DNA of 64,000 bases from Holothuria scabra. Its lineage: Eukaryota > Echinodermata > Holothuroidea > Aspidochirotida > Holothuriidae. The position numbers and the translations under genes were made by a program. The stretch is taken from the NCBI GenBank assembly GCA_037179385.1, contig CM074179.1, positions 37,437,224 through 37,501,223 of the forward strand. The letters are read 5' to 3'. The notes beneath the pieces are model-generated. The model was not told where the DNA came from. It searched no databases and worked only from the letters and a program-made list of their open reading frames with translations. This document shows positions 12,661 through 49,760 of the stretch, piece by piece (the first letter of the stretch is position 1; each line of letters starts with the position of its first letter).

Positions 12661-12689
12661 AAGCCAATCCACACTATGAATATGAGCAC

Positions 12690-22690: not shown

Positions 22691-22950
22691 TAACCAGTGG
22701 GGGAAATTCAGTGTAGAGTTTTCAATCACTTTCATTTACTGCAATGAACTGTTAATAACCTCCATGAAAATTATAATGCATTCTCAAAGCACTAATGATC
22801 AATTTGACCATTGGTTTGATGAACAATGACCAAAGCTCAGGTCAATCTCTGACCCTAAACTTTAAGAAACATTTAATATTATATCTAGGACTTATACATA
22901 TATAATCGTTACACTAAGTGAATAATTAAACCAAAGAAAGTTTCACTTAC

Positions 22951-25664: not shown

Positions 25665-28452
25665 CACTTGGCGTAGCTACTGGGGGGGGGCAGGGGAAAG
25701 TCGCCCCTGGAAAATGATTTGGGGAAATTAGAGGAAATTGGGGAAATTTGATGAGTTTTCTTATTCTCACAAAAAATTTTCACAATTTTTGTTAGAGTAA
25801 GAATTTGTGTGACATATCTCATACATAATTCGTATTTCCATGCAACAAGTTAACACAAATTTCGTCAATGTGGCATGAAACGGCCCGACACGCGTTCCAC
25901 AGAAATGTTTTCTCGTCTCGCAGCAGATTGAGTGTTGTCTTGTATACGCGCGGATGTTTTGATCAGTGCATTCCAGAGCAAGAACCTGTTATTCAGGAAT
26001 TTAACAAAAGCTAATACAGTACAACCAGGGAGGTGTTACTAGATAACACCTCCCTGGTACAACCATAGTCATTATACCTTTCCTTGGTTGGGAGACTCCT
26101 AACGTACACTGTGTACGCACAGACGTAGAAGCTGTATGTACGTTCGTAGTTTTTGTAAGGTGCGTCCCTACCTGTACATAAAAGCATGTTGAGCTCTTCA
26201 AAAAAATTCGTCACGTGACTTTGAAGATGCACATGATCGATCAGTAGCGATATGGCTCCATTAAGTGATGTACTGTTCCTGCTGGGAGGTGAAATTAAAG
26301 TTGGCCCAAGGGCCAAAAGAGAACTGCAAACGACCTCATAATCAGTAAGTTTTTAAGATTTTTGAATAGATGAAGAAGTTCTATGTTCTCGGGTTTCATT
26401 TTCAAAATACTGGTTCAGAGGCCTGCCGTTTGGAGGACTTCCCTGAGGACATTCAGTAGGCCCTACAGGCTTATCATACCGCAGTCAGTGTGCGGTAAGG
26501 GTGAAGTAGACCTACTTCATTACGCTAGGTGGGCTACTTAAAATTTTGTAAGACCATAGTTGCTATCACCCATGCTGTCACCAATCTTTACTGTTTCACG
26601 CGGAGCTCGAAACTGCGAGAAGCTTACCCGAAAATTCGGCCACAACAACGAGAGAGACAATAGTTTAAGGTCACGGGGTCAATAGCCTACGGAAGCCGAT
26701 GAGGGGCGTGCTACGTCCGCTTTTCCGCCCACTCCCGAGGCGCGCAAATATGCCCCGATTGGAGCACAACGGTAAAGGGTTAAGGATATGATCACCTTGT
26801 TCACAGTCCCTGCGGTGTACAAATGTTGAAAGGAAGGAAAAAGTGAAAGGATGTGAACACTGACAAGTAACTAACGTAGACCCCCGAGGTTATATTGTAC
26901 TACTAGCTAGCGCGGGAGGGGTTTAAACTATACCGATTTTACGTTGTGTACATAACCATGGATGGGGCTGAAAAAATCCTTGCCTTACGAAAAACTTAAA
27001 GTTAATCTAGAAATTAAAATAAACGGGATCCGTTAGCATAGCCTTATTCTTGGAGGCTTACAGACTAGTTGGGGAAAATATCTTTCTGCTCACTTGGGGT
27101 GTAACAACAAACAGATCCATAAATACCTTGCAGCCTTTTGCACTTAAAATACTGCTGTTCTAACAGGCTATCCTCCGCTATCGAGACACTCCTAGACCTC
27201 CCTCCTGTGGCGTACGAAGAGGGGGGGGGGGCATTGCATCATGCCCATGCGTCATGGACATGCCATTTTTTGTTACGATACTTTGGTAACACAGATTGTA
27301 CTTCAAAAGATAGCATATAAGGATACTCAATTTTCAAAAATATCCAAAGGGAAGGATTGTCTCTGCAAGGTCCTTCAGTGATGCCACTTTTTTTATTCCT
27401 ACAAATAGGCAAATTCTGTCAAATTCCAATTTTTACTTTAAAAAGGTGTATCCCACTGGTAGCACCGACTGATTAAAATAAAAAAAAAACTGCATGTGTA
27501 GATTCTCTTTACAAGCATAAATACGCAATTTTGGGCTATCTGAGGGGTCTGATTATGAAATTTTCTCTGCGCTCCGCACCAACCAATGGTGACGCTTCGC
27601 TCAGTTTTTTGGGCATAATTTTCATTTTTGGGGTCAAAGTAGCTCTTAACTCTCTGATCACTTTGCAGATTGTGAACATACTTTGAAGTGAGCATGTCAT
27701 TGCAAACGACAAAAAAAGATAGGGGCTCTGTAGAATATTCTTATCAGTCTGGAAAATGCTATTTCTGTCCACCTTAGGGGTCTGATTTTGGAAATTTTCC
27801 CTACATTCCGTGCCAACCAATGGTGGCGCTCCGCTTATACAATCTTCATGACAAAATAGCGTTTTGTGGCCAGGAAAAATCCCAAATCGTAAACCGATCA
27901 ATGCTCTTTGATTTTGAGTCCTAGGAGTATGCAAATTTATTTAATGACAAGTTTTACCTCGTAAGGTAGCGTAAATGCCATAAGAATGCATGTAAAGACA
28001 CGAAATTTTCAGTTTTATCTTCACGAACCACCAGGCTCAACTTTTAACACTCTTCCCGTCAAAGTTGAAAATCTCGCACAGTTTTGCATCTAGGCTCCTT
28101 GAAAACGTCAAAAAATTTCAAAGGGGATGGAGACACCTCCCCTAGGCTGGCGATCACTCAACATACTGCGTGCCCCCTTCAGAGAACTCCTGCGTACGTC
28201 ACTGCTTAAGTATACAAATAAACCAGATATTGTTGACCAATATAAATATACTAAGAGTTGTTCTTTCCAGTTGCTGTAGGCTATGTTATACATTAAGATT
28301 AAAGTACAGGTAAATTACATAATGACGAGGTAATGTTGTTAAACTTGTAAATTGGCATATTTTACATGAAAAGCATATACAGTGACCGGGAAAAGTTTTG
28401 GGGAAATTTCATACCTTTGTACCTTCTGGAAAATATCCTAGCTACGCCACTG
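25665..28452. mobile_element. CAGTGGCGTAGC-type element, copy 1 (2.79 kb)
   Basis: The left end reads CACTTGGCGTAGCTACTGGG and the right end CCTAGCTACGCCACTG, inverted. It aligns along most of its length with 38,480-40,601 (copy 2), including GCAGCAGATTGAGTGTTGTC, TATACGCGCGG, AACGGGATCCGTTAG and the 27.2-28.4 kb part with two GC-rich modules (27,570-27,600 and 27,804-27,834). Copy 1 has about 740 bp (26,064-26,800) absent from copy 2. A second internal GTGGCGTACGAAG-GGGG start at about 27,209 suggests nesting that predates the two copies. No coding capacity. Confidence 0.75.
26026..26056. mobile_element. Micro-hairpin insertion A (31 bp, 7-bp TSD)
   Basis: Perfect 13-bp arms CAGGGAGGTGTTA and TAACACCTCCCTG around a 5-base loop. 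Flanked by GTACAAC at 26,019-26,025 and 26,057-26,063. The paralogous position in element copy 2 (38,838-38,844) has a single GTACAAC and no hairpin, which is the predicted empty site. Confidence 0.75.
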
Positions 28453-30556
28453 CACTGAACCGCTGTGAGTTGAAATCATCCTTAACAAACAACAACTTTA
28501 TTACAACCGTACATGAAGTACCGCTTAAGATTATCCACTGGGTGAAAGATTTTATGGAAGTATTGCTCAACGGTGTGATCAGCTTAATTAGACTCGATTA
28601 CGAAATGATAAATTTGATCTCCACATACGTTTCACTGAATATTAATACATAATATAATACAATATAATACATACCCATACTGACATCGTAACGATCGCCC
28701 CAAGTAAAAGTTTAGTGAAGTATACTGTCATTGCACGGAGGTACTGGTGTGAATTACTTCATTGCCAACGCCTCGCCTTGTAACATATATAATGCATTTA
28801 CTGTTTTATACTGTATGTTTCGTCCCCTACAATACGCTTTTTGTGCATTGCTAGACTTATAACTCACGAGTCTAAAGGTCGGCAGGATAAAGGGTAAATA
28901 ATTTATTCAATCGAAATATTACAAAGTAAATACATACCACATGATATAGCTTCAAGTGGAATACCAACAATGAGTCAGTCTAAAGTCTTCACTTTGATGT
29001 ATGTGTACTGTTGCAGTGTTCTACTTGTAAGCATATCTATGCAAAATAAGTAGGGCCAGTACGTGACATTTCTACTTTGCGTTGATCAGGTTCACAATTT
29101 CACTCGAGACAGGGTGAGTTGTCTGCATGTCGGGAAAAGTAAATAAAGGTAAACTGAATATCTACGATAAAACCAATTGCTAGAGAAATCAAACGGTGTG
29201 ACTGGATGAAAAGGGGAAGGAAAAATTATTTGCTTCGATACTTAGATTAAGTTCAGTTTTAAACCTTTTGACTTTTTTTCCAGTTTTGGAACACTGGTTT
29301 GTTTTCCCTACTCTATTGCTTATATTGGACGCTACGCAAAAAACGAGAAGGTTCCACTCAATCTTACCTGGAGAAGCTAAAAATGCACGGTACTCTTCCA
29401 ATACCACGTTTGACAATGCTTTGAGTACCAATCCACGAACAAATTTTTGAAACGTACTGGTCAATAAAGCTCCTTTTAGGACATGGTAAAAAAGTACTAC
29501 GTACGTATGTTAAAGTTTTACCTACTTACCTAATTATTTTCACGTACGGGGAGGGGGGGGGGGCACGGCTTGGACCAAATTTCTAAGCGGCGCGTCAACG
29601 GATGTTGACGAGGAGCGTATCTAGAAAATGTTTGCTCTTCATACCTTCTAAATGACCGTAACTGACCCTTCCCATGCTTGTTTGACAGTGGTCCCTTTTA
29701 CGGTCAGATGTTCCCTTAACAGCTTTATATGCAGAAACAGAAAAGTCAAACGATTTTATCACTTATTTTATCCTTTGGTCGTTTAAAGGCGTAGTTAGAT
29801 TTTTCGACTAGGATAAGGGGTTGGAGGGGGGGGGGGGTATGACTGACGGTTGGTTTTGACCGCGGTCCTATGGAGGAGCTTAAGGAGAGGGGTGTTCACT
29901 CTTTTGAAAATTGTTTGAATATTTTAGGATTTCATGACGCCATTTCGTAAATTTTTGGCAAATTTTAAGGATCTACTTTTGCTCTTTTCACTTTTCCGTC
30001 GATCGCTCCCGTTATACATGTAGGCAGACAAATGACCCACTTTTTTCTCCTTTCTTCTGTTCAATCAAAACGGAGGGAACGCCCAAGTTTCTGAATAAAT
30101 ATTTAGACTACGTATATTTGTTTCATAAATTAAATGGGTGAAACACTTGTTACCTACACAACTGTCATTTGTGTAATAATGGCAAAAAATGTGCAACAAC
30201 GCGTTATTTCCACTGGCAATGCTCAGAGCATATTGTCAGATGCGCCCCAGTTGATCACAACGTCATCTGCTATACACCAGTATTCTTGTAGGATGGTACA
30301 TTTTCTCAATGAAACTTGCTAACCCACATGATCCGCATTTAGATTGTCGTTGTTAATTATCGTCCTTTCTTGTAAGTAATCTTTCTGAGCGAGACGCACC
30401 TAGCAATACCACAACATGTCATATGGCTTGTTACTTCATAAGTTAACAAGAAAGAACATTTTAGTTCAAAGTGTACCTCAAGTCAAAAACTGCAATAATA
30501 TTTATTAAAGCGCATGAAAAATGAATTCCAACAGTCCAACTCCCATCTTCATAGGA
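28453..30556. other. Spacer with a solitary GC-rich module
   Basis: Mostly AT-rich. One plus-orientation GC-rich module with inner inverted repeat lies at 29,586-29,617 next to a G run (29,550), and another G run at about 29,826-29,838, suggesting decayed element fragments. A candidate exon is listed separately. Confidence 0.35.
29368..29472 (-). other. Candidate exon upstream of the NACHT exon
   Basis: Minus strand: TCCTAAAAG acceptor, then an open 105 bp reading TSTFQKFVRGLVLKALSNVV and LEEYRAFLASP, ending CTCCAG|GTAAGAT, a strong donor. The helical, basic segment is compatible with part of an N-terminal domain but is not recognised. It is on the same strand and 4.9 kb upstream of the NACHT exon, so it may belong to that gene; this link is inference. 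Confidence 0.25.
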
Positions 30557-30561
30557 CTTTC

Positions 30562-33093
30562 CATAGGCGGCGGAAGCGGGGGGCCAGGGGGCCTGCCCCC
30601 CCCCAAAGTTTTTGATGAGATTTGGGAGAGGCATCCCCCCCCCCCATAACTGAATGTCGCAAAATAAAATTTTCAAAGTAATTAAACCAATTTAAGTTGC
30701 TTTTATTACATTTCGGCTATTCTTCGGCTCAAATATTACTTTTCAGAGTGCAAAAGTTGTAGAGCTTCCGGGGGCTTCGCACCCTGGACCCGACATTAAC
30801 GATAACTTGTAGGAGAGTTTATTTTCGCCCTTCAAAGAGTTGCAGGGTATGCTGCAATTGTGCGTCACTCTGAATTTCGGAATAAATTCAGGTAGACTGT
30901 GACAAGCTTCATATCTTCGGAATCTCTTGACTTTTTACTCGTCGGGTTTCAGGATGGATAATTTTCTAACAGATTTGGAGTGGCTAAAACTGGCTACGTT
31001 GGTGTGAATTAAAGTGTGCTCCCAGCATCTGGCATGTTTCTACCTCATGTAGGGATTTTTTTTTTTTTTTTTTTTCATTTCCTTGGGATGCACAAAATCT
31101 TTCCAAAAACATACTTGGTGTGGTGGGTAGCCTATTAGGGTCTAATAGCTCAAAAAGCTATGACCGTTACTTCACAAATAATCACAACACAATGCCCTAA
31201 ATTGTCGATTATCCAAATTCTTTCGAGCATTTGTCCGAAAATGAAAAAGTATCATAGAAAGGGTAACATAGTTACGAAAGGTTGAGAGATAAAAAATCGG
31301 GACACATTTGGGAAGCCTGTGGCTTAAAAGAAACAATTATTTTTGAGACTGTTTTTAAATCCTGTGTAACACAATTTTCGAAATGGCCGATAATTTTAAT
31401 AGCTTCAAATCTTGCTGCAAAACAGAAGACGCTGTATTTAAAGTAAAATTTCCATGGAAAATAAAAAAAAAAATCTGCGACACATTTGGGTAAAATGTTG
31501 AAAAAGGTTTTCATCATCCCAACGTCACACTGTAGTCTTGCAAATATTGCCCGAAATGGTCAAATATTCGGGCAAAGGTTAAAAAAATGCTGGGATGTTT
31601 TCAATTGCCAAATTAATTAACGGATAGACAGGAGGGTATTCAGGTCTACTTTTTCAAAAGTAAAATCACATACAGTCGGAAGTTCGGGTACACAATTATT
31701 TTTATATATATTGAATATAGCCAAGAGTCGCAATAGAGTAAAATTCATCGACATGTTTTCAATTCCGGTTTGTAGTTTCTCCCGAAAATATGCAGGACCA
31801 TTTCATCGATTGGTAGCGATACATTTTATATATAGTAATTTTGTGATCAAATAGCGACTGCTTAGATCCCCCTATAAGCCTGGGAAATGTCATTTTCGAC
31901 TGTCTCAGGCTGTCAGGGGTTATATTTTTCAAAATTTTCTGTTCGCTTCTCGCCAACCAGTAGTGAAGCTCCGCGCAGATAGTCTTCCTAGCAGCATTTT
32001 AGTTTCAAGTGAACGTTTTTGTGCAAACAGAACTTCGAATTAGCGACTTCTAAGACCTCCTATAAGGGTAGGAAATGACATTTTTGACTGTCTGAAGTGA
32101 TCAGATTTTTTAAAATTTCCTGTACGTTTCTCCCCAACTTATGGTGGTGCTCCAATTAGATCGCTTCATATCAGAATTTAAGTTTCAAGTCATTTTTTAC
32201 AAAAAGAAACTCAAAATAGCGACTACTTAGATCCCCATATAAGCCCGAGAAATGCCACTTTCAACTGTCTGAGGGGTCGGATATTTAAAAATGTTTTATA
32301 CGCTTCGCGCCAACCAATGGTGGCTCTCCGCTTAGTCTTTCTGGCTGAATTTTAGTGTGGAACGAACGTACGTTTATCTGCAATTGAAACTTAAAAAATA
32401 AACGACTGATTGGATCCCCTTTACAAGAATGGGAAATGTCATTTTTGACTGTCTGAGAGGTACGGATTTTCAAATTTTCTGGACGCTCCCCGCCAACCAG
32501 TGGTGGCGCTCCGCTTTGATTGTCTTTCGGGCAGAATTACATTCTTCGGTCAAAAATCTTCTACCTCAAAACTGAAATGCTTCCCTGCGCCTCTGGAAAT
32601 ACCTTATTCAGGTGTGCACTGGAACAGCTGCTTGAAACATTCAGCAGGATTCCGGATTTGCGATCCTATGACACATAGTCCAGTGGAGTAATGAACTGAG
32701 CTAATCAGTATCTCAAAAGTGTTTTAATGTTACAGCAGAAAAATCACAAATTTTTCTCACCAGAATTCTCGACGAATATACCTGGCAAATGCCATTTCCA
32801 GCCATCTGGGAGGTTTAAACTCCAAAATTTTCTTTGTACGCTCCGCGCCTACCGAAGGTGGCGATACACTTAGAAAGTAAAATCCAGCCACCCCTTACAA
32901 AAGTTTCCATTCCCCCATTTACCCCTACCAGGGCTTTGCACCCTGAAACAAAAACATTGGCCCTTAAGCCGTTCCCTGGACCCCACACCGATGGGGTTTT
33001 GTGCTTCGCGTAAAACCGACCGCCTTACGGCGTCACTGTTTTGTCGGCTGCCGAAAACTTGTGCCCCAATAAAAACAGCTTCCGCCGCCTATG
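30562..33093. mobile_element. 2.53-kb element with CATAGGCGGCGG termini
   Basis: The 16-bp ends CATAGGCGGCGGAAGC and GCTTCCGCCGCCTATG match exactly and are inverted. A short CTTTC direct repeat flanks it (30,557-30,561 and 33,094-33,098). The flanks resemble 61.24-61.42 kb, which lacks the element (see findings). The interior has five or so ~180-200-bp tandem units, each with a GC-rich module (31,944; 32,124; 32,301; 32,484; 32,839). No coding capacity, so non-autonomous. Confidence 0.8.
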
Positions 33094-33106
33094 CTTTCTA
33101 GAGCCG

Positions 33107-33440
33107 AGACACAAAATGTTGACATTTATTCACTTAAAACAAATTGATCCATTGCGCAATAATCTGCGACTTTCTTGTTGTATAACTCACATTAGCCTAC
33201 CTGCTTTGTTTTACTTTAAACCTAGAAATGTTTTATGACCTTGAACACTTGCTTGTTAAGCATGTTGTGCAAAGGGGGCTTAATTAATAACATCACCCTA
33301 TAAGAGTAATAGTGGTATCAAACTCAGGTAAATGATCCGGTTAAGTTCGGAAAAACAAAGAAATACAAAGATTGTAATCTGAGTAGTACAAAATTGACAT
33401 CAAAAATTATTACTCAATGTACCGTTTTAAGTTGAGTAAA
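33107..33440. repeat. Imperfect fold-back repeat
   Basis: 33,107-33,180 matches 61,335-61,405 in direct orientation, while 33,265-33,430 matches roughly 61,370-61,500 as the reverse complement (GGGCTTAATTA, CATCACCC, AAGATTGTAAT, CAATGTACC blocks). The two halves therefore form a diverged inverted repeat of one family. Confidence 0.6.
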
Positions 33441-35397
33441 AAAGAGTAAAAGAATTTATTTTTCGTGGTCTTTAATGTATTCCGAACATATCTCGTATGT
33501 GAAAAGTTTTTGGAGTGTTTCCCCTATTGCTTTTATTTTACTTTAGGTACACTTTAAACTCGTACATGAACAGTTTTTGGAGACCCCCCCCCCCCTTTTT
33601 TTTTCAAAGCTAATATATGCTAAGATATATGAGCTTTCCGAGTTATGTTCTCTAATTTTACATGAAATGACCTTAGGCATGGCTCGTCTTCCTTTTCTTT
33701 GTGACGTGTCTGTTCGTCGTATTCGTCAGAACTACTGAATATTATTACGACGTGTACGTAATAATTATCACGTACGTAAGTTAATAATTACCATGTACGT
33801 ACGTAAGTTAATAATTACCATGTACGTACGTAATTATTTTCTTTTTTACCATGTCAAAAATAGAATTTCGTACATATCCCTGGACCCATCAGTAACCCTA
33901 ATAATTGCTCCTGGAACGAACACTGTCAACATTCGGGTTTCAATTGTCAATCACGTCTTAGCTGCATTAGATTGTGTTGCCTTCCACAGGGTCCTACTTT
34001 GCCCTGTTTGTTCTGATAGTTTGATAACCAATTCAAACATTTTTGTTGATTGTAAGGTTGGACTCTATTAAGTTCATTGCGACAGGTGAGTTTAGGAATT
34101 TGCTGCTTCGTGGAAGTGTGAGTAAAAGGCTGTAATATAAAAAACGAACTGAGTTTCCGCGCATATAACACTTAACATAAATCTCAGGGTCTAGACCAAC
34201 CAAGCCTTAATTGGGTCCAGCCAAACCTCTATTAACATATGTATGACTGGATAAAAATTGATTTACGGACTTTTCAAGTAAACTAAAAATTGAAAAAAGT
34301 GTTGCAGGTTTTGGAGCACATGATCTTGACTATCCAGAGGATTCATGCATTAACATAACACCGAACCGTCTTTAAGTGTCAACTGGAAATGTGCATTTCA
34401 TCCTTAGCAAACACCGGGTGTCCTATTTGAAAAGGACTATTATATACTTTGCCATTCATTACGGTGTACCAGGTAGCCGTAACAGCTTCCTGGATGTACG
34501 TGCTAAAAACAGAGTGATGCATCCAAAGACCAGCCAGACGAGTTTTCCTCCAGAGCGTTAGGCAGACACCCCCCCCCCCCCCCCCCGTACTCGACGTGAT
34601 ACTCTGAATTCCTCCAATTTTATTTTAGGTGACAGTGGCGCACGCAAATAGTCTGTGGCTGCACATTCTGTACATTCAATGATCTATTAATACCTCTGTC
34701 CCAAGAAATGTTCATGTGTCATTTAAACTTCTGCCTTGAGTTGCTTGCTTCATCACGTGTTTTCATTAAAGTGTGCCATAACTATTATGTAAAAAGTAAG
34801 TTACAAAGCATAGACAAAGATACCAATTTGGTTCATATCCTTTCTCCACACTTCGGACTTCTGAATTGAGGGTACCAAAGCTGAACTTAAGTTGTCCTCA
34901 AAAGAAGGTGCTAAATTTCGCAAAAATATGTGATGTGAGATTTGTAATACGCAAATTGCAGTTATGGGTCTTCTTTGATTTGTAATTGATATTTTTTTCA
35001 TCTGCTTCTGCAACCCTTGCCAAAATAACTTGCATACTGGTATATGGAGTACTTAACGAAAAAAAAAAAGAAAAAAAAAAAAAGAAGAAGAAGATCGCTT
35101 TAGAAAATCGTTACCTATCAGCTGGGATACAAAAAAAGAAGAAAATAATGTAAGCTACCTATAAACCACTGAATATAAAATAAGGGGATAAATGCGAGGG
35201 TGCCCTGTCTTAAATGTGGTCCGCTGCCTCTGTGATGACGGCATCGGAGGTTTTAAATCACATTTAAGACCGGGGTACCCTGCTTTTATCCCCATTCATA
35301 AATACTTTGAGAAAAATTGGTAAAAAACATGAAAAAATTTTAAAAAATGGTCAAATTTTAGAGATCAACTTTTAATTCTCCTCAGTTTTTTAGCCCC
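33441..35397. other. No gene recognised
   Basis: Contains a two-copy 27-bp repeat with ACGTACGT cores at 33,771-33,824 and an 18-C run at 34,569-34,586. A minus-strand open stretch at 34,801-35,013 is unrecognised. An A-rich tract lies near 35,059-35,093. Confidence 0.35.
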
Positions 35398-37079
35398 TAC
35401 ACTCTTTAAAAAAATTGGGCAAATTTTGCCCAACTTTTCGACCAACACTGGGCATCTATTCAACAACCTAAACAGTTGGGCAAAACTTTACCAACCAAAT
35501 TTGGTAATGTTTGAACCCAACTGCTGGGCAGGAGATTACCCAACTGTTTGGTAAATTAGCATTTTAAAACATACCCACTTGTTGGGCACTTCTTTTATTA
35601 AGCTGTTGGGCAAATGCATTAACCAAATGTTGGTTATATATGTTAATCATCTTTTCCTTAAACGTTGGTGCTTTCTTTACATGTTCGGTTGTAGGTTATA
35701 GCAGGGAGCTGCCACTGCAGCTCCCTGGTTATGGCAACCCATCGGTCCCGGTTAAAAAACCCTGGCTTAATAACCTATTTGGTTTGTTACTGAGTTTCGT
35801 ATAGGTACGTCCAAAACTATCATTTTTAAAAGGCACTGTATTTTTAAAAGGCACTGTAAAATGATGTGTGTTAATGATGTGATGAAGTCTTGTAGTTTCA
35901 TCAATGCATAAATGTGAACACAAGGGCAGCATGAGAATTAGCTGGTCCGTAGCTCTCATGCACTGTTATCATGGTTATGAGACAGGCTTCTTGTTATGCC
36001 GAAATGTTTCAAATAGTAATATATAAACGCTCATTCGGACGTGAAAGAGAATATCCCAGATCCTGACCTCTCATTGGATAGCAGTTTTGCGCCAAATACG
36101 AATCATGGAATCTCATACAAATGTGTTCTAGTTCGTAGAACTGTTTAAAGAATTTTATGGAAATAGAGGTCGATTTCATGGTCTAAAGTAATGTACGAGT
36201 TTAGCTGTTTGGCCAATATAAAAGATGCCAAAGAGAATTTTCAGATTATGGTACCATGGTCTGATTATGAGAAGAATTGTGAAACAAATCAGGTCAAGTG
36301 CACTGTTGTTTGGTGACAACACTGCAACCAACAATATACCCAACAAATTGGCAAAAAGTTACCCAACAAGTGGGTAAAGGGAAAATATGCTCAACTGTAG
36401 AATAAAATCTTATCGTCATTTTGACCAGTCAGTTGGGTATAACACATGCCAAGTCGCTTCCACGTTCTGAGATGCGTTACATTTTTGGACTTTTCGTAAC
36501 ATATTTGGACTCTTGTCAACAAACTCAGCCAGCACGAGGTACTCCCCTATTGGCTACCCAAATGCTCTTCTGTGTTACATACTCCCTACAGAAAAAAGGA
36601 ATTTTCTAGGATTGTCTGAATTGCACTGCCTAGTATGCGAGCAAGTGTCGATATTCATATTTATGTACAGGTAACATCAATGTAGACTCGCTATTTCAGC
36701 ATATTTTACAGAGTACTCAACGGAAGCCATTGCATGCAAGTGGCGCTTTTTGGGAGGGTGTTTCGAATCAGAAGAGCGGAAAGTTTCAGAGATCAGTTAC
36801 TGCTTTGCCCACATTTCATCGGCATTCGACATTGTTTGGCCATTCGACTTAGTATTGTGCATCACCTTTTCATGAGTATACGCGTGCATGGAAGGGGAAA
36901 TTTAACCATTATGTGAGCAAAGATTGACCAACACTTAAGCAATTACTTTTACTCAACAAAAACTTTGCCCAGCGTTTAAACATTGCACCAATTAGCCCCA
37001 AAGTTGGGCAAAGTTTAACCAACACATTTCATAAACTTCTTTAACCAACGGATATTTTACCCAACGTTTTAAGAGTGTA
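35398..37079. mobile_element. GTTGGGTAAA-motif element, 1.68 kb
   Basis: Ends are TACACTCTTTAAAAA at the left and TTTTAAGAGTGTA at the right, inverted. Both subterminal regions are built of TTGGGCAAA / TTTACCCAAC words in both orientations (about 35,415-35,640 and 36,305-37,065). The same architecture recurs at 50,508-50,821. No coding capacity. Micro-hairpin B sits inside it. Confidence 0.7.
35702..35727. mobile_element. Micro-hairpin insertion B (26 bp, 7-bp TSD)
   Basis: Perfect 11-bp arms CAGGGAGCTGC and GCAGCTCCCTG around the loop CACT. Flanks are GTTATAG (35,695-35,701) and GTTATGG (35,728-35,734), six of seven matching. Confidence 0.7.
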
Positions 37080-38479: not shown

Positions 38480-40601
38480 CAGCGGTGTAGCTACTGGGGG
38501 GCAGGGGGGAGGGAAGTTGCCCCCCCCCCCCCGTCTCCGGAAAATAATTTGGGAAATTTGATGAATTTTCCTACTCTAACAAAAATTTCTTAAAATTTTT
38601 GTTTAGAATAAAAAAATTCTGAGACATTTCTCATACATAATTCGCATTTTCATGCAACAAATAAACCCAAATTTGAGATTTCGTCAGTGTCGCATGAACC
38701 GGCCCTACTTGTGTTCCACAGAAATGTCCTCGGCGCGTAGCAGATTGAATGTTCTCTTGTATACGCGCGGTTTTTATGATCAGTGCATTTCAGTGCACTT
38801 GAAGCTGTTATTGAGGAATTTAACAACAGCTGATACAGTACAACTAACACTGAAAGGCTGTAAACCCGTACTTATCCCCTTGCACCAGGGAGGTGTGATC
38901 TAGTTACACCTCCCCGCTTGTACACAGTTTCTGCGTTGTACACTTTGGGAATTCAGTAAAAGGATGTGAAAACTGACAAGTCACTAACGAAGACCCCCTC
39001 CCCCCGTGTTCATAATATTGTCCTGCAAGCTAGTAGCAGCTATGCCGATTTTACTCTGTGTACATAACGATGGATGGGCTGAAACAATCCATGGCCAACG
39101 ATTAACCCAAAGTTAGTCTAGAAATTAGAATGAACGGGATCCATTGGGATACTTAGATTTTGTTACTTAGCTTAATCCTTGGAGGCTTACAGGCTAGTTC
39201 GGGAAAAAAGCTTTTTTGCTCACTTGGGAGGTAACAGTTAACGGGTCCATGAGTACCTTGTAGCCTTCTTTACTTAACAGACTGCTGTTCTAACAGGATA
39301 TCCTGCAGTGTGATCGAGCCACTATTTGGCCTCCTTTTAGTGGCGTACGAAGGGGGGGGGGGGGTTGGGCCATGCCCCCTTCACAAATGCCATTTTTTCT
39401 TTGTTCTTAAAAATAACTAGTTAAACTTTAGTAACACAGTTTTTACTTCAAAAGATAGCATATGTGACACCAGGTTGCATATAAGGACACTTAATTTTTC
39501 AGAAATTTTCAAAGGAGAAGGATTGTCTCTGCAAGTACGTCCATCAGTGATGCCAATTTTTTTAATTCCTACAAATAGGCAAATTCTGTCAAATTCTAAT
39601 TTTACCTTTAAAAGGTAGAGTCTGTTTCCCACTGGTGGCATCGATAAAAATAAAGAATACATGTTTAGATTCTCTTTAAAAGCATTAATACGCTATTTTT
39701 GGCCATCTAAGGAGTCTGATTTTTCGAATTTTTTTTTTACGATCCGCGGCAACCAATGGTGGAGTTTCGCTCAGTCTTTTGGGCAAAATTACATTTTTGG
39801 GTCAGATTAACCCTTACCTCTCTGATCACTTTGCAGTTTGCGAGCATATTTTGAAGAAAGGATTTTATTTGCAAACGACAAAAGAAGATAGTGACTGGGT
39901 AGATTCTTCGTATAAGTCTGGAAATGTTGTTTCCAGCCACCTGAGGGCTCTGATTTTTCGAAATTTTTTCTACGATCCTCGCCAACCAATGGTGGCGCTC
40001 CGCTTAGATAGTCTTTATGATAAAGTAACGTTCTGTGGCCAAGAAATACCACAAATCCTATACCGATCAATGCTCTTTTTATTTTGACTCCTAAAAGTGT
40101 GCAAATTTAATGACAAGTTTTACTTCGTAAGGTAGCATAAATGGCATAAGAATGCATGTGAAGACCCAAAAGTTTCAGTTTTATCCTCATGAACCACCAC
40201 GATTCAACTTTTTACAATGTTCCTGTCAAAGTCAAAATCTTGCACCATTTTGCATGTAGGCTCCTTGAAAACGTCAAAAAATTTCCGGACACCCCTCCCC
40301 TTAAACCATAGTGCATGCCCCCCCCCTTCAGAGAAATCCTGGGTACGCCACTGCGTTAGTGCAAACAAATAAACCAGATATTGTTGACCAAAGTAATATA
40401 CTAAGAGCTATTATTTCCAATTGCTCTTTGTTATTCTTTAAGATTAAAAATGCAGGTAATATTACATAATGACATGGTAATGTTTTTATACTTGTGCATT
40501 TTTTTTATATGAAGTACATTCACATTGACCGGAAAAAACTTTGGGGAAATTTCATACCTTTGCCCCCCCCCCCCCCGGGGGAAATCCTAGCTACGCCACT
40601 A
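38480..40601. mobile_element. CAGTGGCGTAGC-type element, copy 2 (2.12 kb)
   Basis: Left CAGCGGTGTAGCTACTGGGG and right CCTAGCTACGCCACTA. Collinear relative of 25,665-28,452 lacking its extra ~740 bp. It carries two GC-rich modules (39,740-39,770 and 39,973-40,003), long C runs near both ends (38,519 and 40,563) and micro-hairpin C. No clean target duplication seen. No coding capacity. Confidence 0.75.
38886..38916. mobile_element. Micro-hairpin insertion C (31 bp, 7-bp TSD)
   Basis: Arms CAGGGAGGTGTGA and TTACACCTCCCCG around TCTAG, one mismatch and one G-T pair. Flanks CTTGCAC (38,879-38,885) and CTTGTAC (38,917-38,923), six of seven matching. Same length and nearly the same arms as hairpin A but at a different site. 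Confidence 0.65.
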
Positions 40602-40659
40602 ACGCGCATACCATAAAAATACCGTCAGTTTACCCAACGTGGTATACCGTATGATGTTA

Positions 40660-40832
40660 CAACCGATAATGTAAAAATTAAAAATAAACCGATCATGTTT
40701 AAAGGACCGATAATGTAAAAATATCGATAATGTAAAAAAAAAAATACCGATAATGTAGAAAAATAATACCGATAATGTTAAAACTTCTTTGAGCCGATAA
40801 TGTAAAAAAGGGTACCTATAATGTAAAAACTG
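40660..40832. repeat. CCGATAATGTAAAAA short repeat cluster
   Basis: Eight near-copies of CCGATAATGTAAAAA at irregular 18-35-bp spacing, starting about 60 bp after the right end of the 38.5-40.6 kb element. Confidence 0.8.
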
Positions 40833-41016
40833 TTCGAACAAGGGTTTTAAGTGCAAACTTATAGGTACATATGAGTGCGAGATTATGAAGGTAGGAAGGT
40901 AAGCTGGCAGGCGACTGGCGGGCTGGGCGAGAATGAAAATACCAGGCTCGTGGGTGGGTTCGTGTATGCATGCGTATGTGAGCTTGTACCCTGCATGTGT
41001 GAATTTATTGGGTTAT

Positions 41017-44000: not shown

Positions 44001-44248
44001 AATTATATTAGCGTCACTCGGATTAGCCTTTATCTTAGGTACTTTATTATTAAAAAAAGAATGAAATCAGATGATGCTAATGATACAAATGATATTAGCA
44101 CAAGATTAGCCTTTATCTTAGGTACATCGTTATTCAAAAAATTCCCTCGGATGGCGATCAGTCCCTGTAGTTGGATGACACACTCACCTCATAAAAAGTC
44201 TTGGCTACTCCCGTGATGAAGACTTCACTCAGATACAACGTAGTCAAT
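41017..44248. mobile_element. 3.23-kb element with 44-bp terminal inverted repeats
   Basis: Left 41,017-41,060 and right 44,205-44,248 are inverted with 40 of 44 positions matching (ATTGACTA, TCTGAGTGAAG and TCATCACGGGAGTAG shared). The interior contains ~180-bp tandem units (42,340-43,280) and no transposase. The family is not recognised; target duplication unclear. Confidence 0.7.
42340..43280 (+). repeat. ~180-bp tandem units with GCGGCCATTTTG cores
   Basis: GCGGCCATTTTGTTGTTT-like cores followed by GCCATCTTGGTTGA-like words occur near 42,340, 42,520, 42,698, 43,068 and 43,262, with a decayed unit near 42,880. Confidence 0.75.
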
Positions 44249-44504
44249 TATGCACTCGAAGAAAAGATGGGCAAAAATTACCAAATGTTGGGGAAACATA
44301 GCTCATGGAACAATTTTTAAAAAACTTTGTTAAACTTATTGGACAAAATTTATGCAATAATAAGGCAAAACAGTGAGGCTTCCCCCAACCTCTAGCAATT
44401 TTCCTCTCCAACGACGTAACATGTGCTTTGTTTGCCCAACTGTGTTTAATTAATCACCGTAAGGAGTACATTTTTGGTATTCTGAAATCAATACAAGTAC
44501 AAGA

Positions 44505-45389
44505 AGAAACATTAATTGACGTAATTTACATCATGTGACCACTCGGAAATAGACATTAACTACATTGCAAGAAATAGCCAAGACAAAAGGTCTCTTAGGC
44601 TCTCTAGATACCGAATTCACAATAAATGATTAAATGTAGCCTAATCCTAAACTTATTGGATGCAATTTTCTGGCTTTTGAGACCACGAAAGTACAGAAAT
44701 AAGTATTTTCATGGGATTATCGTTTAGTGTCAGAAATAGCCATTTAAATGAGAATGATCACTTGAAGAAAAGCAAAATGGAAACTGCTCATCAAAACTCT
44801 TAAGCCATTACCACTATGATAACAGTTTCATTTTAGTTTAACCCTAATGTTCTCTTCAAATGATTTTGAAAAATTGCTTGGAAAAAGTTTTGGAAGCTAT
44901 TTTGGTATCTTTATAAACTCTTTTTAATGTCTATGTTGACAATTATCCCCGACAATAAGAGGGCTCTTTGCGCTACAATTATTGTTGCGCCCTTTAAAAC
45001 ATTTGTTATAGGCCCAGGAGTGTGAATTTAATGTCAGTCTGTGTATTTTGTAAGGTAATAATCACGCTTGGTGTGGAAGCAATCAACTTAGCACAGCGAC
45101 AACATTAGTGTGTATAAAGCATGAAACATAAGTCTCGACAAAACCTATCCCCATATTACAGAAAATGACCCTTTTCATCAAAATAAAGGGCAGAATTAGT
45201 ACAGTTACTGGTGGCTGTTTGAGCATTTCGTTATCTGGGCCTTAAAACAACGCTATTAAATTATGTCCTTTTCCAATAATGGTGCAAGACTAAAGTATGT
45301 TAAAAACCTAAAAAGGGCGCCGACAGCGACTTTGGTCCGTCAGGGGGGGGGGGGGGGCGCCCCCTGACCATTTGGCAGCTCCGCCACTG
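44505..45389 (-). mobile_element. hAT-like element fragment, relative of 20.7-22.3 kb
   Basis: The right edge GGCAGCTCCGCCACTG matches the CAGTGGCGGAGCTGCC end of the element at 20,748 in reverse orientation. Collinear blocks continue leftward (AAACAACGCTATTAAATTATG, GGTGGCTGTTTGAGCAT, CCTCTTGTTGTCGGGGAT equivalents) to about 44,505. The other end is missing or truncated. Confidence 0.75.
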
Positions 45390-47563
45390 CATCAACCAAT
45401 CGCACGATGACATTGTTTTAAACTTAAAGGCAGACTTCACCTTCCCAAATAACATTTTTCTGGTTGGAAGCAAGAAATTATCACTTACCTTAATGACCTC
45501 TGGTTCAACAAAAAGTCAAAAGACCTGCACAGAGAAACTCACTTTAAAACGTGGGTTCCGGTGTTCTTTCTGATTACATGTAACGGTCATGTTGTGCCTC
45601 TCAAAATTTGGGAGCTGGAAAAATAGGTATCAGTGAGGGACGGTTGCTGCATTCCACCGACTATGTCTTAGCTGTATTTGTTAGAAAAGATAAGCGAAAA
45701 TATACGGGTAGGACGTTAAACTGCATCCGGTTGTGGAGTTTGTTTAAACGTGGGATTAATGAGGTTACCCTTTGTCACAACTGCCTCCGGGGCACCCTTG
45801 GGCAAGGTGTACCTGTATATTTGCTCTGTGCTTTTTCAGTGCTGTTGCCTTCGGGCGTGTTGTGCCTACGGGCGTGTTGTTGCCTACGGGCGTGTTGTTG
45901 CCTTCGGGCGTGTTGTTGCCTTCGGGCGTGTTGTTGCCTTCGGGCGCGTTGTTCTGCGTTTCGTTGTTTGGGGGTTTCATGTGGGGCGGTGGTTGTTGTA
46001 GGGGGCGGTTGGGGTTGAGTTGACGGGTTGTTCGGGTGTTGGTGTGGGGTTGATGTGTCGTTTCCGTTTATGACAAACTTTTTTGTCCCATGTTTTGTGT
46101 GATGGTTACCGTTTCTTTTTTCGTCCGGCCGGGTTGAGTTAGGTCTATTAGTTCATACGTGCCTGTTTCTATGTACGTTTTAAAATGAAGATAAGCGAAA
46201 ATATACGGGGTACTAAACAGATATCAGTCTATGTTATGTAGTGTTATTGGACATTGAGGTAGGAACACAGGCTAAAATATCGAGTGTTTGAAAAGCAAAA
46301 GGGTTTTAAAGCGAAATCTTTGGACATCAGATTTGCGCGGCATGTTTAAAAACGAAACATGTTTGCAAAGTGTTGGCAAACTATACTGTTTAGAAATGCG
46401 TTTAACTCACAAAAACCTTTATAAGAGCGCACTCAGATATGTTGATTCTTAGTAAACTAGTAACTCTTCCATACTTTGAGACATTATTTCCCAATAGATA
46501 TGACTCTGAATTTTATGTAATTATATTTAACGATAAAAGGAAGATATACATAATATAGGCTTCAATCTTTGCAAGTGCACCATCACGCCAATTTACAACA
46601 AACAGTCCTTGTAACAAATTAACCTTAGAAGAAAACATATTGCGACTTATGGCGTACCAAATTTTTTTTCAAGGGATTGCTGGATTTGTTCAGCATGCGG
46701 CCTATGGGAGAGTCTAAGGGACGTACTTTTCGAAAACATGGCATCGGTAGGACTGGTTACCGGACAACTCCCACCCTGACAATTAACATCCAGACAATGT
46801 ATGACCTCGACGATTGGCATACAGGGCCGTTGTTACCCTAGGCAGTTATCACAGTTGTATGAGCGGTAATATGTGGATCAAAGAATACTAGTCAACACGA
46901 ATTTTTAGTAGGATATTTCAATGAAAAAAAAGGGGATTCAGAACTTACCGATAAGAAATTTAGTATGCAGTGTGGGTGGCCAAGCACAGTGCAAGCCTCG
47001 GCGAAACCACAGTAAGCGTATGAGGGAATCCTTGCTATTTTAGGGGATAAGATATATTTCATATTTTACAAACAGAAAACAGCCTCCATCAACTTCCTTA
47101 AATACACTTTTGTTCCATGTTGTATTAAATATGAAGTTAATGGACTATTACGGGTCCGAATGTTCTGGCCCTTTCAAAGTACTGGCTTCCTCATTAGCCG
47201 TGTGCAGTACATTAAGGTAGAGTGACTAGTTCACTTGCCCCATTTCTCCTTCTCATGGACGAGAGGTGTTCTTCACGCTTCGAGTTACAAATGTTCAAGA
47301 ACTACTGGAGACCCTGAAGAGGGCCGGTGAATAGCTTCCTGTAAGGGGTAGATGCGCACTGTTTAGCAAGGTGTTTCTTGATTGGCCTAATTTGTCTCTG
47401 TATTGTATGGATGGTATTCTTTGTTCAGGTTAGGGATTAGGTTAGGGATTAGGGGTATCGTTAACCAGTTAGGAAATTTCTTGTTTGACAGTCTCGGCCT
47501 CCTGAAAGGGGTACTCAAATTAATTAATCTTCTTGCACTCAACGCGTGGTTTGTCTAATCCCC
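45390..47563. other. Spacer with an 18-bp minisatellite
   Basis: Apart from the minisatellite and a GT-rich stretch to about 46,150, I see no gene. An open frame of 136 codons from 45,608 covers the minisatellite but its upstream codons show no homology. Confidence 0.35.
45847..45953 (+). repeat. 18-bp minisatellite, about six units
   Basis: GCCTTCGGGCGTGTTGTT units, the first one base short. Because 18 is divisible by three, every frame stays open and yields a six-residue repeat, CLRACC on the plus strand and PEGNNT on the minus strand. No independent evidence for translation. Confidence 0.9.
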
Positions 47564-47850
47564 GGTAAAAATTCCAGTTGAACCCAGTTGACCAATTCAA
47601 CTGGGTTCAGCCGGGACCCAGTTGAACCCAGCTGGTCTTGTTCCAAATCCCATCTAAAACCAACTGGGTTGAACTGGGTAACCAGCTTTCAACTGGATTG
47701 ACTACATTCAACCCAGTTGAATTTGTTTAAATTAACATATTAGATTAACTTGGTTTAACTGGTTTTCGACTGGTTTCTAACTAGGTTCTAACTGGATCCA
47801 GTTGAACCCATTTGAACCCAGTTTAGCTGGGTTCAGCTGGAATTTTGACC
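47564..47850. mobile_element. 287-bp MITE-like element built from CAGTTGAACCCAG
   Basis: 24-bp ends, GGTAAAAATTCCAGTTGAAC at the left and the complement of GGTCAAAATTCCAGCTGAAC at the right, are inverted with 22 of 24 matching. The interior is a succession of AACCCAGTTGAA / TTCAACTGGGTT words in both orientations, so much of it can fold on itself. No coding capacity; no clear target duplication. Confidence 0.7.
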
Positions 47851-47919
47851 AAGGATACCACGCTTTCGGCGGGCATTTTCACCCGGTCACATTTATGGAA
47901 CGCATTTCATACAAATCTC

Positions 47920-48250
47920 GTTAATAACGGCGTGATTGGTAGTAACGGCGTTGTACATTGAGTTAACAACGGCGTGATTATCATTAACAGCGTAGTAAAT
48001 ATTAATAACCACGGCGAAATGTTAAGTATTCACGTGCTAAATTTCGTTAACAGCGGTGTGATCAGAAGTAACTACGCTACGTATCACAAGAGGTTAACAA
48101 TGGCTTATTCGGTTTCAACAGCCAGCTAAAAGTTGGTAACGTCCTTGTCGCGATCAACCGCCGGTGAAGGAAACCATGTAATTTCAATCAACAACGTGTA
48201 AACAAGAGGTAGTGGCGCTGTTCCAGTTAACACAAACACGACGGTGTAAA
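47920..48250. repeat. Short GTTAACAACGGCGTGAT repeat cluster
   Basis: Repeated TTAACAACGGCGTGATTA-like words at roughly 30-40-bp intervals, decaying to the right. Irregular spacing. Confidence 0.65.
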
Positions 48251-49760
48251 CGGTAGTGACCATGTAAACGTAAATGGTTCTTGTTGTCTATGGCGCCATT
48301 AAGATAGAAAGGTGCTGGGTGGGGGCGTGGCGAGGGGTTTACCACTACTTCATTTATGGTTCGAAAACAAAAAATCAAAGCAAAAGTGGAAATAATGGTA
48401 AACACTTTGCCAAGTCCCCACCCAGCAGCTCGCTGTTCATCTTACAAAAGTTGGAAAAATAGCTGTCATTTTATGCAGGTCACTTGAATTGAGATGATAA
48501 AGAAAACCTTTGAAAATGTTTGGGGTATAAGGACCTTTTCCTCCGTTGCATGCGACTTAAAGCATTGGTGGTGACAGTGATATAGTATAAATTTATGTGA
48601 TATGCGAGATGATGTACGAGAAGCAAATAAAACCCGATTCATGAGACAGTATTTAAAAGTGGTGCGCGCGAAGGAAAACAACGTTGGGACCAGAGAGTTG
48701 CTAGACAGTCTCTAGCAACTCCCTGTTGGGACAGCGTTTGAGCCTGTAGTTTTGGTTTCACGAAAGGGATTCGTATGCAGTCGCGCGGACAAGAACTTTG
48801 CAAAATTATTGTAGGTTTGCGCATTTTAGTAATGGTCAATACTATGGTTAGTTTTTTGGTTATTTTGTTAGCTTTTGCAAACTAAGTCATGCCTGAACGA
48901 CTACAGAGGTATTTCCTGTCGAGAAACCAGACTCCATTTTCCCAAGTGCCTGTTCTTTCCATATGGGACATGATATAGAACACTACATTCTGTTCTATGG
49001 TTTTCCTTTCAAGTTTATCTTTTGCCGATGTTCTCGGACAAGCCCCTACAATTTTTATATCAGTGTGAAGAATACGGTAGTGTAGTTTTGAAGGTTGCGA
49101 AGTGTACGATTTTGAAAAAAAGTCAAATGTTTTGTGCCGGTTTTTAAGAGGGCGTTACCAAAGGCATTGCCCGTTTAAGTGGCAGGGGGGTAATTTTTAA
49201 TGGTGACTGCCACTGGAGAAATTGAGTTGGAAATTTTTAACCCCGGCCTAGCGGGGGAATCGCTAAGCCAAAGCCTCGGGGAACTGATTTTGCCTTCAAG
49301 CTATTTGTTTTTAATATGCCATTGATTCGGCGTAATTCAGGGCCATCTTTTGGGGAAATCCTGCTTACTCCAGCGATTAAAACATTTTTTATCAGTTCAT
49401 AATGATTACAAATTTAAGTTAAAAGTATAAACATCAGTCAATTTGCTGAGGATCATAAGCGGCGATCCGTCTTTCAAAGTGTGTGTGAGGGGATGTAGTT
49501 GGTGTCGTAATAAATGAGTGTAGCGCCACCATTACTTGGCGCGGAACGTAAAAAGAAAATTTCTCCCAAAAATACCCACGAGATCACCGAAAGTGGCTAT
49601 CTAACGTGGTTATCTAACGTGATATCATAGCAACTGCCAGAAGCGTATTTCATCAAAAGGTAAAAAGGACTATCGTAAAAAGAATATTAAAGTTAAATTT
49701 GTCTGATTGAAAAAAAAGGGGGATTAATTTTCCGAATCGAGTGAAAAGAACATCATTGGG
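48251..49760. other. Spacer with a solitary GC-rich module
   Basis: No gene recognised. A plus-orientation GC-rich module lies at 49,521-49,548 outside any element whose ends I could find. Micro-hairpin D lies at 48,691. Confidence 0.35.
48691..48725. mobile_element. Micro-hairpin insertion D (35 bp, 7-bp TSD)
   Basis: 15-bp arms CAGAGAGTTGCTAGA and TCTAGCAACTCCCTG with one mismatch, loop CAGTC. Flanks TTGGGAC at 48,684-48,690 and 48,726-48,732 are identical. Confidence 0.75.

What the first reader, a model, noticed from the sequence alone, without database searches (positions are those of the whole stretch)
26019..48732. Four 26-35-bp hairpin units, each flanked by a 7-bp direct repeat: a possible ultra-small mobile element
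At 26,026-26,056, 35,702-35,727, 38,886-38,916 and 48,691-48,725 there is a stem-loop whose arms begin CAGGGAGNTG (once CAGAGAGTTG) and end in the complement, with 4-5-base loops. Every one abuts a direct repeat: GTACAAC/GTACAAC, GTTATAG/GTTATGG, CTTGCAC/CTTGTAC and TTGGGAC/TTGGGAC. With equal base use, a match of at least six of seven has a chance of about 22/16,384 per site, so four of four is not accidental. Sites differ, so these are separate insertions. The units have no room for anything but terminal repeats. They could be end-to-end terminal repeats of a cut-and-paste transposon after total internal deletion, or a hairpin-DNA inserting process. Shared arm ends, different inner arms and perfect pairing suggest either compensated change or that the second arm is copied from the first during insertion.
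Basis: seen in the sequence. Interest (0 to 1): 0.88.

Follow-up and report, generated by a model that had tools for sequence, protein, structure and literature searches.

The report
Hairpin scars of a departed transposon
The four little hairpins are most likely not tiny mobile elements but scars: when a cut-and-paste transposon of this sea cucumber leaves a site it seems to leave about 18 bases of each of its ends behind, and the genome appears to hold thousands of such scars, a natural record of past jumps and of how the breaks were mended.

Summary
In detail: four hairpins with 7-bp direct repeats as stated, plus a fifth, decayed one at 34470-34492. The host is a holothurian. Genome-wide, CAGGGAGN{5,25}CTCCCTG occurs 7399 times against 519 for the reversed pattern; of 49 copies fetched, 35 have a 7-bp direct repeat matching at 6 or 7 of 7 (chance 0.2% each). 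I read the units not as an ultra-small mobile element but as excision scars, unequal joins of two transposon ends: arms shared between unrelated sites reach 20 nt at most, with microhomology or short inserts between them; joins of 18+18, 18+2+18 and 18+14+18 nt occur. Two end sequences read from the scars were then found facing each other on ~702-bp elements: 7 of 7 checked have perfect 7-bp duplications and inverted repeats running on past base 18. Drosophila P excision leaves such scars, from 17-nt tails and 8-bp duplications. P-type transposase domains exist in this genome, but none was tied to these ends.

The parts
26019..26025 (.). left 7-bp target-site duplication of unit 1 (GTACAAC)
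26026..26056 (+). unit 1: excision scar, read as 18 nt of one end (CAGGGAGGTGTTACTAGA, one base off the known parent's end) joined to 13 nt of another
   Evidence: same 18-mer in L084 at an unrelated site; the reading is mine
26057..26063 (.). right duplication of unit 1 (GTACAAC)
34463..34469 (.). left duplication of unit 5 (GGTGTAC)
34470..34492 (+). unit 5, not in the finding: decayed 23-bp scar
34493..34499 (.). right duplication of unit 5 (GATGTAC)
35695..35701 (.). left duplication of unit 2 (GTTATAG)
35702..35727 (+). unit 2: 26-bp scar, carried inside a dispersed repeat (40 scored copies, the window's own included, at 97-100%)
35728..35734 (.). right duplication of unit 2 (GTTATGG)
38879..38885 (.). 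left duplication of unit 3 (CTTGCAC)
38886..38916 (+). unit 3: scar, reads as 14 nt of the parent's end CAGGGAGGTGTGATTAGA + 18 nt of its other end CAGGGAGGTGTAACTAGA (one substitution), overlapping by 1 nt
   Evidence: read by eye against the ends
38917..38923 (.). right duplication of unit 3 (CTTGTAC)
48684..48690 (.). left duplication of unit 4 (TTGGGAC)
48691..48725 (+). unit 4: 35-bp scar (read as about 17 + 18 nt; its parent was not found)
   Evidence: same site family as L070
48726..48732 (.). right duplication of unit 4 (TTGGGAC)
25736..28451 (+). segment A of an old duplication (two matched blocks, 25736-26025 and 26842-28451): carries unit 1; has no unit at the place of unit 3 (about 26800)
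38546..40600 (+). segment B of the duplication (38546-38844 and 38955-40600): carries unit 3; its left block ends with a single GTACAAC, the site of unit 1, without a unit

Best explanation
The units are excision scars of a family of cut-and-paste transposons, of which a ~702-bp non-autonomous element is one living form. Insertion makes a 7-bp duplication at a GTnnnAC-like site. On excision the enzyme cuts one strand at the element's edge and the other about 18 nt inside it, so each side of the gap keeps an 18-nt 3' tail of the terminal repeat. The tails are joined by microhomology, blunt, or with a short insert. That leaves duplication - up to 18 nt of one end - up to 18 nt of the other, inverted - duplication: a near-palindrome of 20-38 bp in the sample, now and then longer. 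Shown: the scars, the duplications, the shared arms, intact elements with the same two ends. Inferred: the stagger, the order of events, and that the enzyme is a P-superfamily (THAP9-like) transposase.
For: Exact 7-bp duplication at 36 of 47 flank-distinct units (30 of 41 if the eight units of the window and L052, noticed because they have one, are left out); all but one base matching at length 6 in 1 of 47, at length 8 in 0, in shifted registers 0-1. Palindromic target consensus GTtnaAC. The longest arm sequence shared by different units at unrelated sites is 20 nt. Ends read off the scars were then found 333 and 256 times, 0 in reversed controls. In the first 100 listed places of each they face each other 694-726 bp apart at 7 places (and once at 46 bp, a scar); all 7 have 7/7 duplications, and both repeats go on past base 18 with TGGAGATCCATyGA. 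Of 11 scars wholly accounted for by these ends 10 stop at base 18. Special joins: 18+18 blunt (L101), 18+GG+18 (L025), 18+14 nt copied from the other arm+18 (L084). 22 of 40 scored parent copies are at least 99% identical, which suggests recent activity. Same scar anatomy after P excision in Rad51-deficient Drosophila: 8-bp duplication, 17-nt tails, microhomology or inserts (PMC2895639 section 7; 17-nt stagger PMC7776569, passages). P-superfamily Galileo makes 7-bp GTANTAC duplications (PMC4168063, passages). P-type transposase domains in this genome: 11, 31 and 5 matches for three families, 0 in 14 control genomes.
Against: No transposase locus was shown to carry these ends. The direct parent was found for one end pair only (it fits unit 3); the parents of the arms of units 2 and 4 were not found, and unit 1's long arm differs from the parent by one base. 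14 of 49 unselected strict units lack a 6-of-7 duplication, 4 of them at 1-2 of 7. One scar, L102 (46 bp, duplication 5/7), runs past base 18 on both sides. The search pattern admits only 19-39 bp, so the upper limit of scar length is partly set by the pattern; the counts that would test it were asked for and never answered (CAGGGAGNTGN{30,60}CANCTCCCTG; CAGGGAGGTGTGATTAGAN{0,30}CTCCCTG; intact ends). The 49 units all come from the first 11 Mb of one contig.
Confidence: 0.88

Rival explanations
1. A true ultra-small mobile element: the 20-38-bp unit itself is cut and pasted by a transposase supplied elsewhere.
For: The same 30-mer stands at three unrelated sites with three different duplications (L021, L022, L059), and three other units recur at two flank groups each. 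One scar type can recur without mobility, though: two P junction types were isolated 14 times each in Drosophila.
Against: Most units in the sample differ in the middle while sharing arms; arms fit two different ends of a ~702-bp parent; the pieces missing are from the middle. Two transposase-bound ends can hardly pair across 20 bp (general knowledge, not tested).
Confidence: 0.06
2. Excision scars of an element whose transposase is not of the P superfamily, for instance a hAT with 7-bp duplications (hAT7).
For: Fungal hAT7 makes 7-bp duplications (PMC12730594, passages); a preference for T second and A second to last in the target is also known for hAT elements (recalled).
Against: hAT excision is not known (recalled) to leave 17-18 nt of each end; P excision is. 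hAT transposases were not searched for here.
Confidence: 0.15
3. Internal deletion derivatives made by interrupted gap repair after excision, keeping only the ends.
For: Would also leave both ends between the duplications; L102 could be one.
Against: Such deletions should end at varied depths; here the readable arms stop at about 18 nt while the terminal repeat goes on to 32-33 nt. Longer CAGGGAG pairs with duplications are few: 4 of 833 pairs above 45 bp in the twenty 10-kb stretches against 1.65 expected, two of the 4 being the L052 complex scar and the L042 element, and 2 in the window.
Confidence: 0.06
4. Chance hairpins or structured RNA genes.
For: None beyond the hairpin shape; Rfam gave 0 matches at gathering scores for the window.
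Against: 7399 against 519 in the reversed control; duplications.
Confidence: 0.01

Closest known systems
Drosophila melanogaster P-element excision junctions (Chan, Yu, McVey 2010, PMC2895639; section 7 with Table 1 read)
   Same: Target duplication on both sides, remnants of both terminal repeats in between, joined by microhomology, blunt or with inserts, some templated.
   Different: 8-bp duplication and 17-nt tails there; 7-bp and about 18 nt here. There from an induced assay in Rad51-deficient flies; here standing in an animal genome.
Galileo (P superfamily, Drosophila; PMC4168063, passages read, one from the abstract)
   Same: 7-bp duplications with a palindromic GTANTAC target.
   Different: Galileo is known for long, variable terminal repeats; here 32-33-bp repeats with 2-3 mismatches on a ~702-bp element. 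No protein relation shown.
Zebrafish Pdre2 / THAP9 (PMC10983969, passages read)
   Same: P-like element of a deuterostome; THAP9-type genes are also reported in the holothurian H. glaberrima (PMC13228809, passages).
   Different: Ends CATACCTGTCAAC, 8-bp duplication.
hAT7 of rust fungi (PMC12730594, passages read)
   Same: 7-bp duplications.
   Different: hAT transposase; the passages seen say nothing of 18-nt scars.
Double-hairpin elements of mitochondrial genomes (search listing only)
   Same: Small repeated hairpins in many places (recalled).
   Different: Organelle DNA; I did not examine them for duplications or a longer parent.

Membership tests
P superfamily of cut-and-paste transposons | 7- or 8-bp target duplication at a palindromic target | tested here: met
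   7 of 7 intact elements 7/7; 36 of 47 scars at 6 or 7 of 7, consensus GTtnaAC
P superfamily of cut-and-paste transposons | terminal inverted repeats | tested here: met
   32-33 bp with 2-3 mismatches at both ends of 7 of 7 elements
P superfamily of cut-and-paste transposons | long stagger: 5' cut about 17 nt inside the element, leaving 17-nt tails | tested here: inconclusive
   supported indirectly by scars: 10 of 11 readable ones stop at base 18; joins 18+18, 18+2+18, 18+14+18; no cleavage was measured and L102 is an exception
P superfamily of cut-and-paste transposons | P/THAP9-type transposase encoded by an element with these ends | tested here: inconclusive
   transposase domains present; none tied to the ends; in the 622 inner bases of one ~702-bp element the longest open frame is 95 aa
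P superfamily of cut-and-paste transposons | GTP dependence | not testable with these tools
   biochemical
hAT (hAT7) | hAT transposase | not tested
hAT (hAT7) | 7-bp duplication | tested here: met
MITE (non-autonomous DNA transposon), for the ~702-bp parent | short, non-coding, terminal inverted repeats, duplications, many near-identical copies | tested here: met
   (open frames looked at in one copy)
self-mobile ultra-small element (the finding's claim) | the unit moves as such, with fixed ends and a fixed middle | tested here: not met
   unequal, truncated middles; readable ones are built from a parent's two ends; a few units do recur unchanged

The most novel reading that the evidence does not exclude
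A deuterostome transposon lineage cuts with an 18-nt stagger and a 7-bp duplication, and its scars outnumber its living copies so far that the genome is a readable archive of thousands of natural germline excisions and of the end-joining that closed them. The enzyme may be a P relative with a shifted cut, or an unrelated transposase that reached the long stagger on its own.
Probability: 0.3. Interest if true: 0.75.

Novelty: new variant of a known kind. Interest (0 to 1): 0.62.

Why it matters
P-type cleavage with its very long stagger is known in detail from one insect. Scars of the same anatomy in a sea cucumber suggest the cut is an old trait of the superfamily, and let its position (about 18, not 17) be read from sequence alone. 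Thousands of scars with known starting ends would be a natural collection of germline break-repair junctions, so the balance of microhomology, blunt and templated joining could be measured in a wild animal. They also warn annotators: short palindromes flanked by direct repeats can be what a transposon left, not an element.

Tried and rejected
Ultra-small mobile element: set aside (see rivals). Second arm copied from the first during insertion: set aside, since readable units join two different parent ends. RNA gene: Rfam gave 0 matches in the window. Longer CAGGGAG pairs with duplications: 2 in the window, and 4 of 833 pairs above 45 bp against 1.65 expected in twenty 10-kb stretches taken at 5.0 Mb of C1-C20, two of the 4 being the L052 complex scar and the L042 element; not followed to a parent. 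One-armed scars: L037 at 8273 looks like one, but 16 hits at 42 motif occurrences (most of them the known units seen from both sides) stand against 72 hits at 954 control occurrences, so the class is not shown. Single ends in 315 kb of fetched sequence: seven printed unpaired CAGGGAGNTG, three of them one repeat, none led to an intact element. A P-transposase fragment in L033 is decayed and lacks CAGGGAG ends. The viral-contig scan gave 17 stretches, which I did not inspect; I draw nothing from them. Coral MITEs (PMC2872659, abstract and outline) were looked at and are not similar. Three counts were asked for repeatedly and never answered (listed in the Against line).

Rows dropped: of the 50 distinct places printed, one (C1:5786145) was not fetched; in L052 the complex scar near 3098-3148 was left out of the counts; L084 was counted as 31 bp and read as 50 bp. 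L101 and L102 were picked from the lists because their ends lie close together, so they are not a random sample.

On re-reading I mended, among others, the statement that 58 of 59 scars stop at base 18: only 11 of the 59 can be read against the known parent. My odds did not change, since the reading rested on the shared arms, the duplications and the parent.
Full report
OBSERVATION. Between random positions of the window a 7-bp match of at least 6 of 7 has frequency 0.0020, so four of four is about 1.5e-11. The same scan showed a fifth, decayed unit at 34470-34492. The window is animal DNA: the NACHT open frame at 22909-24471 is at best 84% identical to proteins of Holothuria leucospilota. The assembly has no name here, so I say holothurian and no more. 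It has 1.19 Gb in 31 contigs, with the window at C1:37437224-37501223.

GENOME-WIDE. CAGGGAGN{5,25}CTCCCTG occurs 7399 times per strand (the pattern is its own reverse complement), against 519 for the same pattern read backwards. One search printed 50 distinct places, all in the first 11.1 Mb of C1; I fetched 49. The 7-bp flanking repeat matches 7/7 in 15, 6/7 in 20, 5/7 in 7, 4/7 in 3, 2/7 in 2 and 1/7 in 2. With the window's five units and three from L052 (these eight were noticed because they have duplications) there are 57 units in 47 groups of distinct flanks. 36 of 47 match at 6 or 7 of 7 for length 7; with at most one mismatch it is 1 for length 6, 0 for length 8, and 0-1 for shifted registers. 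Without the eight it is 30 of 41. The target is a weak palindrome, GTtnaAC: T2/A6 in 55 of 72 symmetrised counts, G1/C7 in 41 of 72. I take these as target-site duplications. Not every strict hit is a separate event: unit 2 lies inside a repeat of which 40 copies (of 864 candidates; the window's own included) were scored at full or nearly full length, at 97-100%, and three other shared-flank families occur among the 57 units.

PAIRED SEGMENTS IN THE WINDOW. 25736-26025 matches 38546-38844 (81%) and 26842-28451 matches 38955-40600 (76%). The first match stops at the base before unit 1, and segment B there has one GTACAAC and no unit. Segment A has no unit 3; aligning A with B after removing unit 3 and one duplication scores 70, against 61 with the unit. 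Both sites thus look empty in the other segment. The left flank of unit 3 is only weakly conserved, and a ~700-bp stretch present only in A follows unit 1, so I rest little on unit 1's right side.

ANATOMY. The hairpins are not generally perfect: 29 of 47 have perfect arms of 9 nt or less. They form series: one arm long, the other cut back, the middle differing, as in CAGGGAGGTGTGATTAG|TTACACCTCCCTG...GATTAGA|CACCTCCCTG...GATTAGA|CCTCCCTG. The exact arm sequence that different units at unrelated sites share ranges from 1 to 20 nt; 15 of 94 arms share 17-20 and none more. The pattern limits units to 19-39 bp, so this ceiling is not wholly independent of the search. The 38-mer of L025 is 18 + GG + 18 nt. 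L084 is 18 nt + 14 nt that repeat part of the other arm + 18 nt, inside a 7/7 duplication. From this I proposed scars of an element cut about 18 nt inside its ends and read off a pair of ends, CAGGGAGGTGTAACTAGA and CAGGGAGGTGTGATTAGA.

PARENT. The second end occurs 333 times exactly (reversed control 0), the first 256 times (control 0). Only the first 100 places of each are listed. Among these, the two ends face each other at seven places 694-726 bp apart: five at 702 bp (C1:25515509, C2:24399487, C2:24406673 reversed, C2:45230535, C5:28780270), one at 694 (C3:10809971) and one at 726 (C5:4350665); an eighth facing pair, 46 bp long, is a scar (L102). I fetched 60 bases at each end of all seven: 7 of 7 have 7/7 duplications, and in all both repeats go on past base 18 with TGGAGATCCATyGA. 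Set against these two ends, 11 of 59 scars are wholly accounted for: ten use at most 18 nt of an end (in L101 a 19th base agrees by chance), one (L102) runs past base 18 on both sides. The other 48 have arms of other, unknown parents or inserts, or are mutated, and do not test the limit. L101, picked because its two ends abut, is the second end joined blunt to itself, with TTGGAAC on both sides. Unit 3 of the window reads by eye as 14 nt of one end and 18 of the other with a 1-nt overlap, given one substitution. The inner 622 bases of the C1 element have no open frame above 95 aa. Of 40 scored copies (766 candidates) 12 are 100% and 10 are 99% identical after rounding, the rest 93-98%: a family that looks young and non-autonomous. 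By hand, at least 11 of the 100 listed places of the second end belong to such intact copies; the five listed on C1 that I had fetched before are scars; most of the rest were not examined.

MECHANISM. Excision of Drosophila P elements cuts 17 nt inside each end and leaves 17-nt 3' tails at the donor (PMC7776569 and PMC2895639, passages). Table 1 of PMC2895639 (section 7 read) lists junctions from Rad51-deficient flies: 8-bp duplication, part of one tail, microhomology or insert, part of the other tail, duplication; some inserts are templated. The holothurian units have the same anatomy with 7 in place of 8 and about 18 in place of 17. Galileo, of the P superfamily, has 7-bp duplications with consensus GTANTAC (PMC4168063, passages). 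The genome has P-type transposase domains: PF21789 11 matches, PF21787 31, PF12017 5, none in 14 control genomes; a preprint on H. glaberrima reports THAP9-like genes there (PMC13228809, passages). That such an enzyme moves the ~702-bp element is inference: no transposase was found between these ends.

LIMITS. Parents of the arms of units 2 and 4 were not found; unit 1's long arm is one base off the known parent. Some strict units have no duplication (4 of 49 at 1-2 of 7). Counts beyond 39 bp and counts of intact ends were asked for but did not complete. The number of independent excisions is lowered from 7399 by chance hits (519 in the control) and by scars that travel in repeats, and raised by decayed scars and one-armed joins, which the strict pattern misses.

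NOVELTY. The kind (P-type excision scars) is known from experiments. My searches of the paper library (listings, of which I opened seven papers in part) listed no report of such scars standing by the thousand in a genome, nor of this family; that is a statement about those searches only.

Noticed in passing
window 26064-26763 (approx.): A ~700-bp stretch present in segment A only, between GTACAAC (right duplication of unit 1) and GCACAAC; no terminal repeats seen by eye. Possibly a second insertion at the same place, or a deletion in B.
   Followed up: partly
L052:3091-3155: A complex scar with four copies of ATyTAAC and partial end sequences between them, as if repair had copied the flank repeatedly.
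   Followed up: partly
L037:8273: ATTGAAC-CAGGGAGCTGCCACTG-ATTGAAA: looks like a one-armed scar with the other end lost up to the duplication; the class is not above chance in the sample.
   Followed up: partly
L042:2062-2277: 216-bp stretch with similar inverted ends (CATGGAGCTGGAAGAG / CTGGGAGCTGGAAGAG) and a perfect 7-bp direct repeat GTTTCAG; perhaps another short element family.
   Followed up: no
G000 C12:38314804, C11:35960604 and 35983517, C1:24526135, 27921387, 30034245, C11:50367837, C15:30515256: P-type transposase matches with open frames of 294-669 aa and a small PF21789 match 3.4-4.8 kb downstream: perhaps a multi-copy, spliced clade; candidate autonomous elements.
   Followed up: no
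G000 C2:24399487/24406673 and C14:36241852/36246790: Pairs of near-identical ~702-bp elements in opposite orientation 5-7 kb apart, which may reflect local hops or an inverted duplication.
   Followed up: no
G000 C2:15188518, 15189772, 15191024: Three copies of the 18-base end CAGGGAGGTGTAACTAGA in one orientation at steps of about 1.25 kb: an end or scar caught in a tandem repeat.
   Followed up: no
L069 against L020, L028, L073 and window unit 2: Same repeat and duplication as unit 2, but a different middle (24 instead of 26 bp): a mutated scar, or a second excision from a copy of the repeat that still held the element.
   Followed up: no
window 22909-24471: NACHT-domain (NLR-like) open frame, 84% identical to Holothuria leucospilota proteins.
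   Followed up: partly
window 8115-8606: Two exact tandem copies of 246 bp.
   Followed up: no
window 12560-14199 and 3703-4456: Tandem arrays of a ~145-bp unit, in opposite orientation to each other.
   Followed up: no
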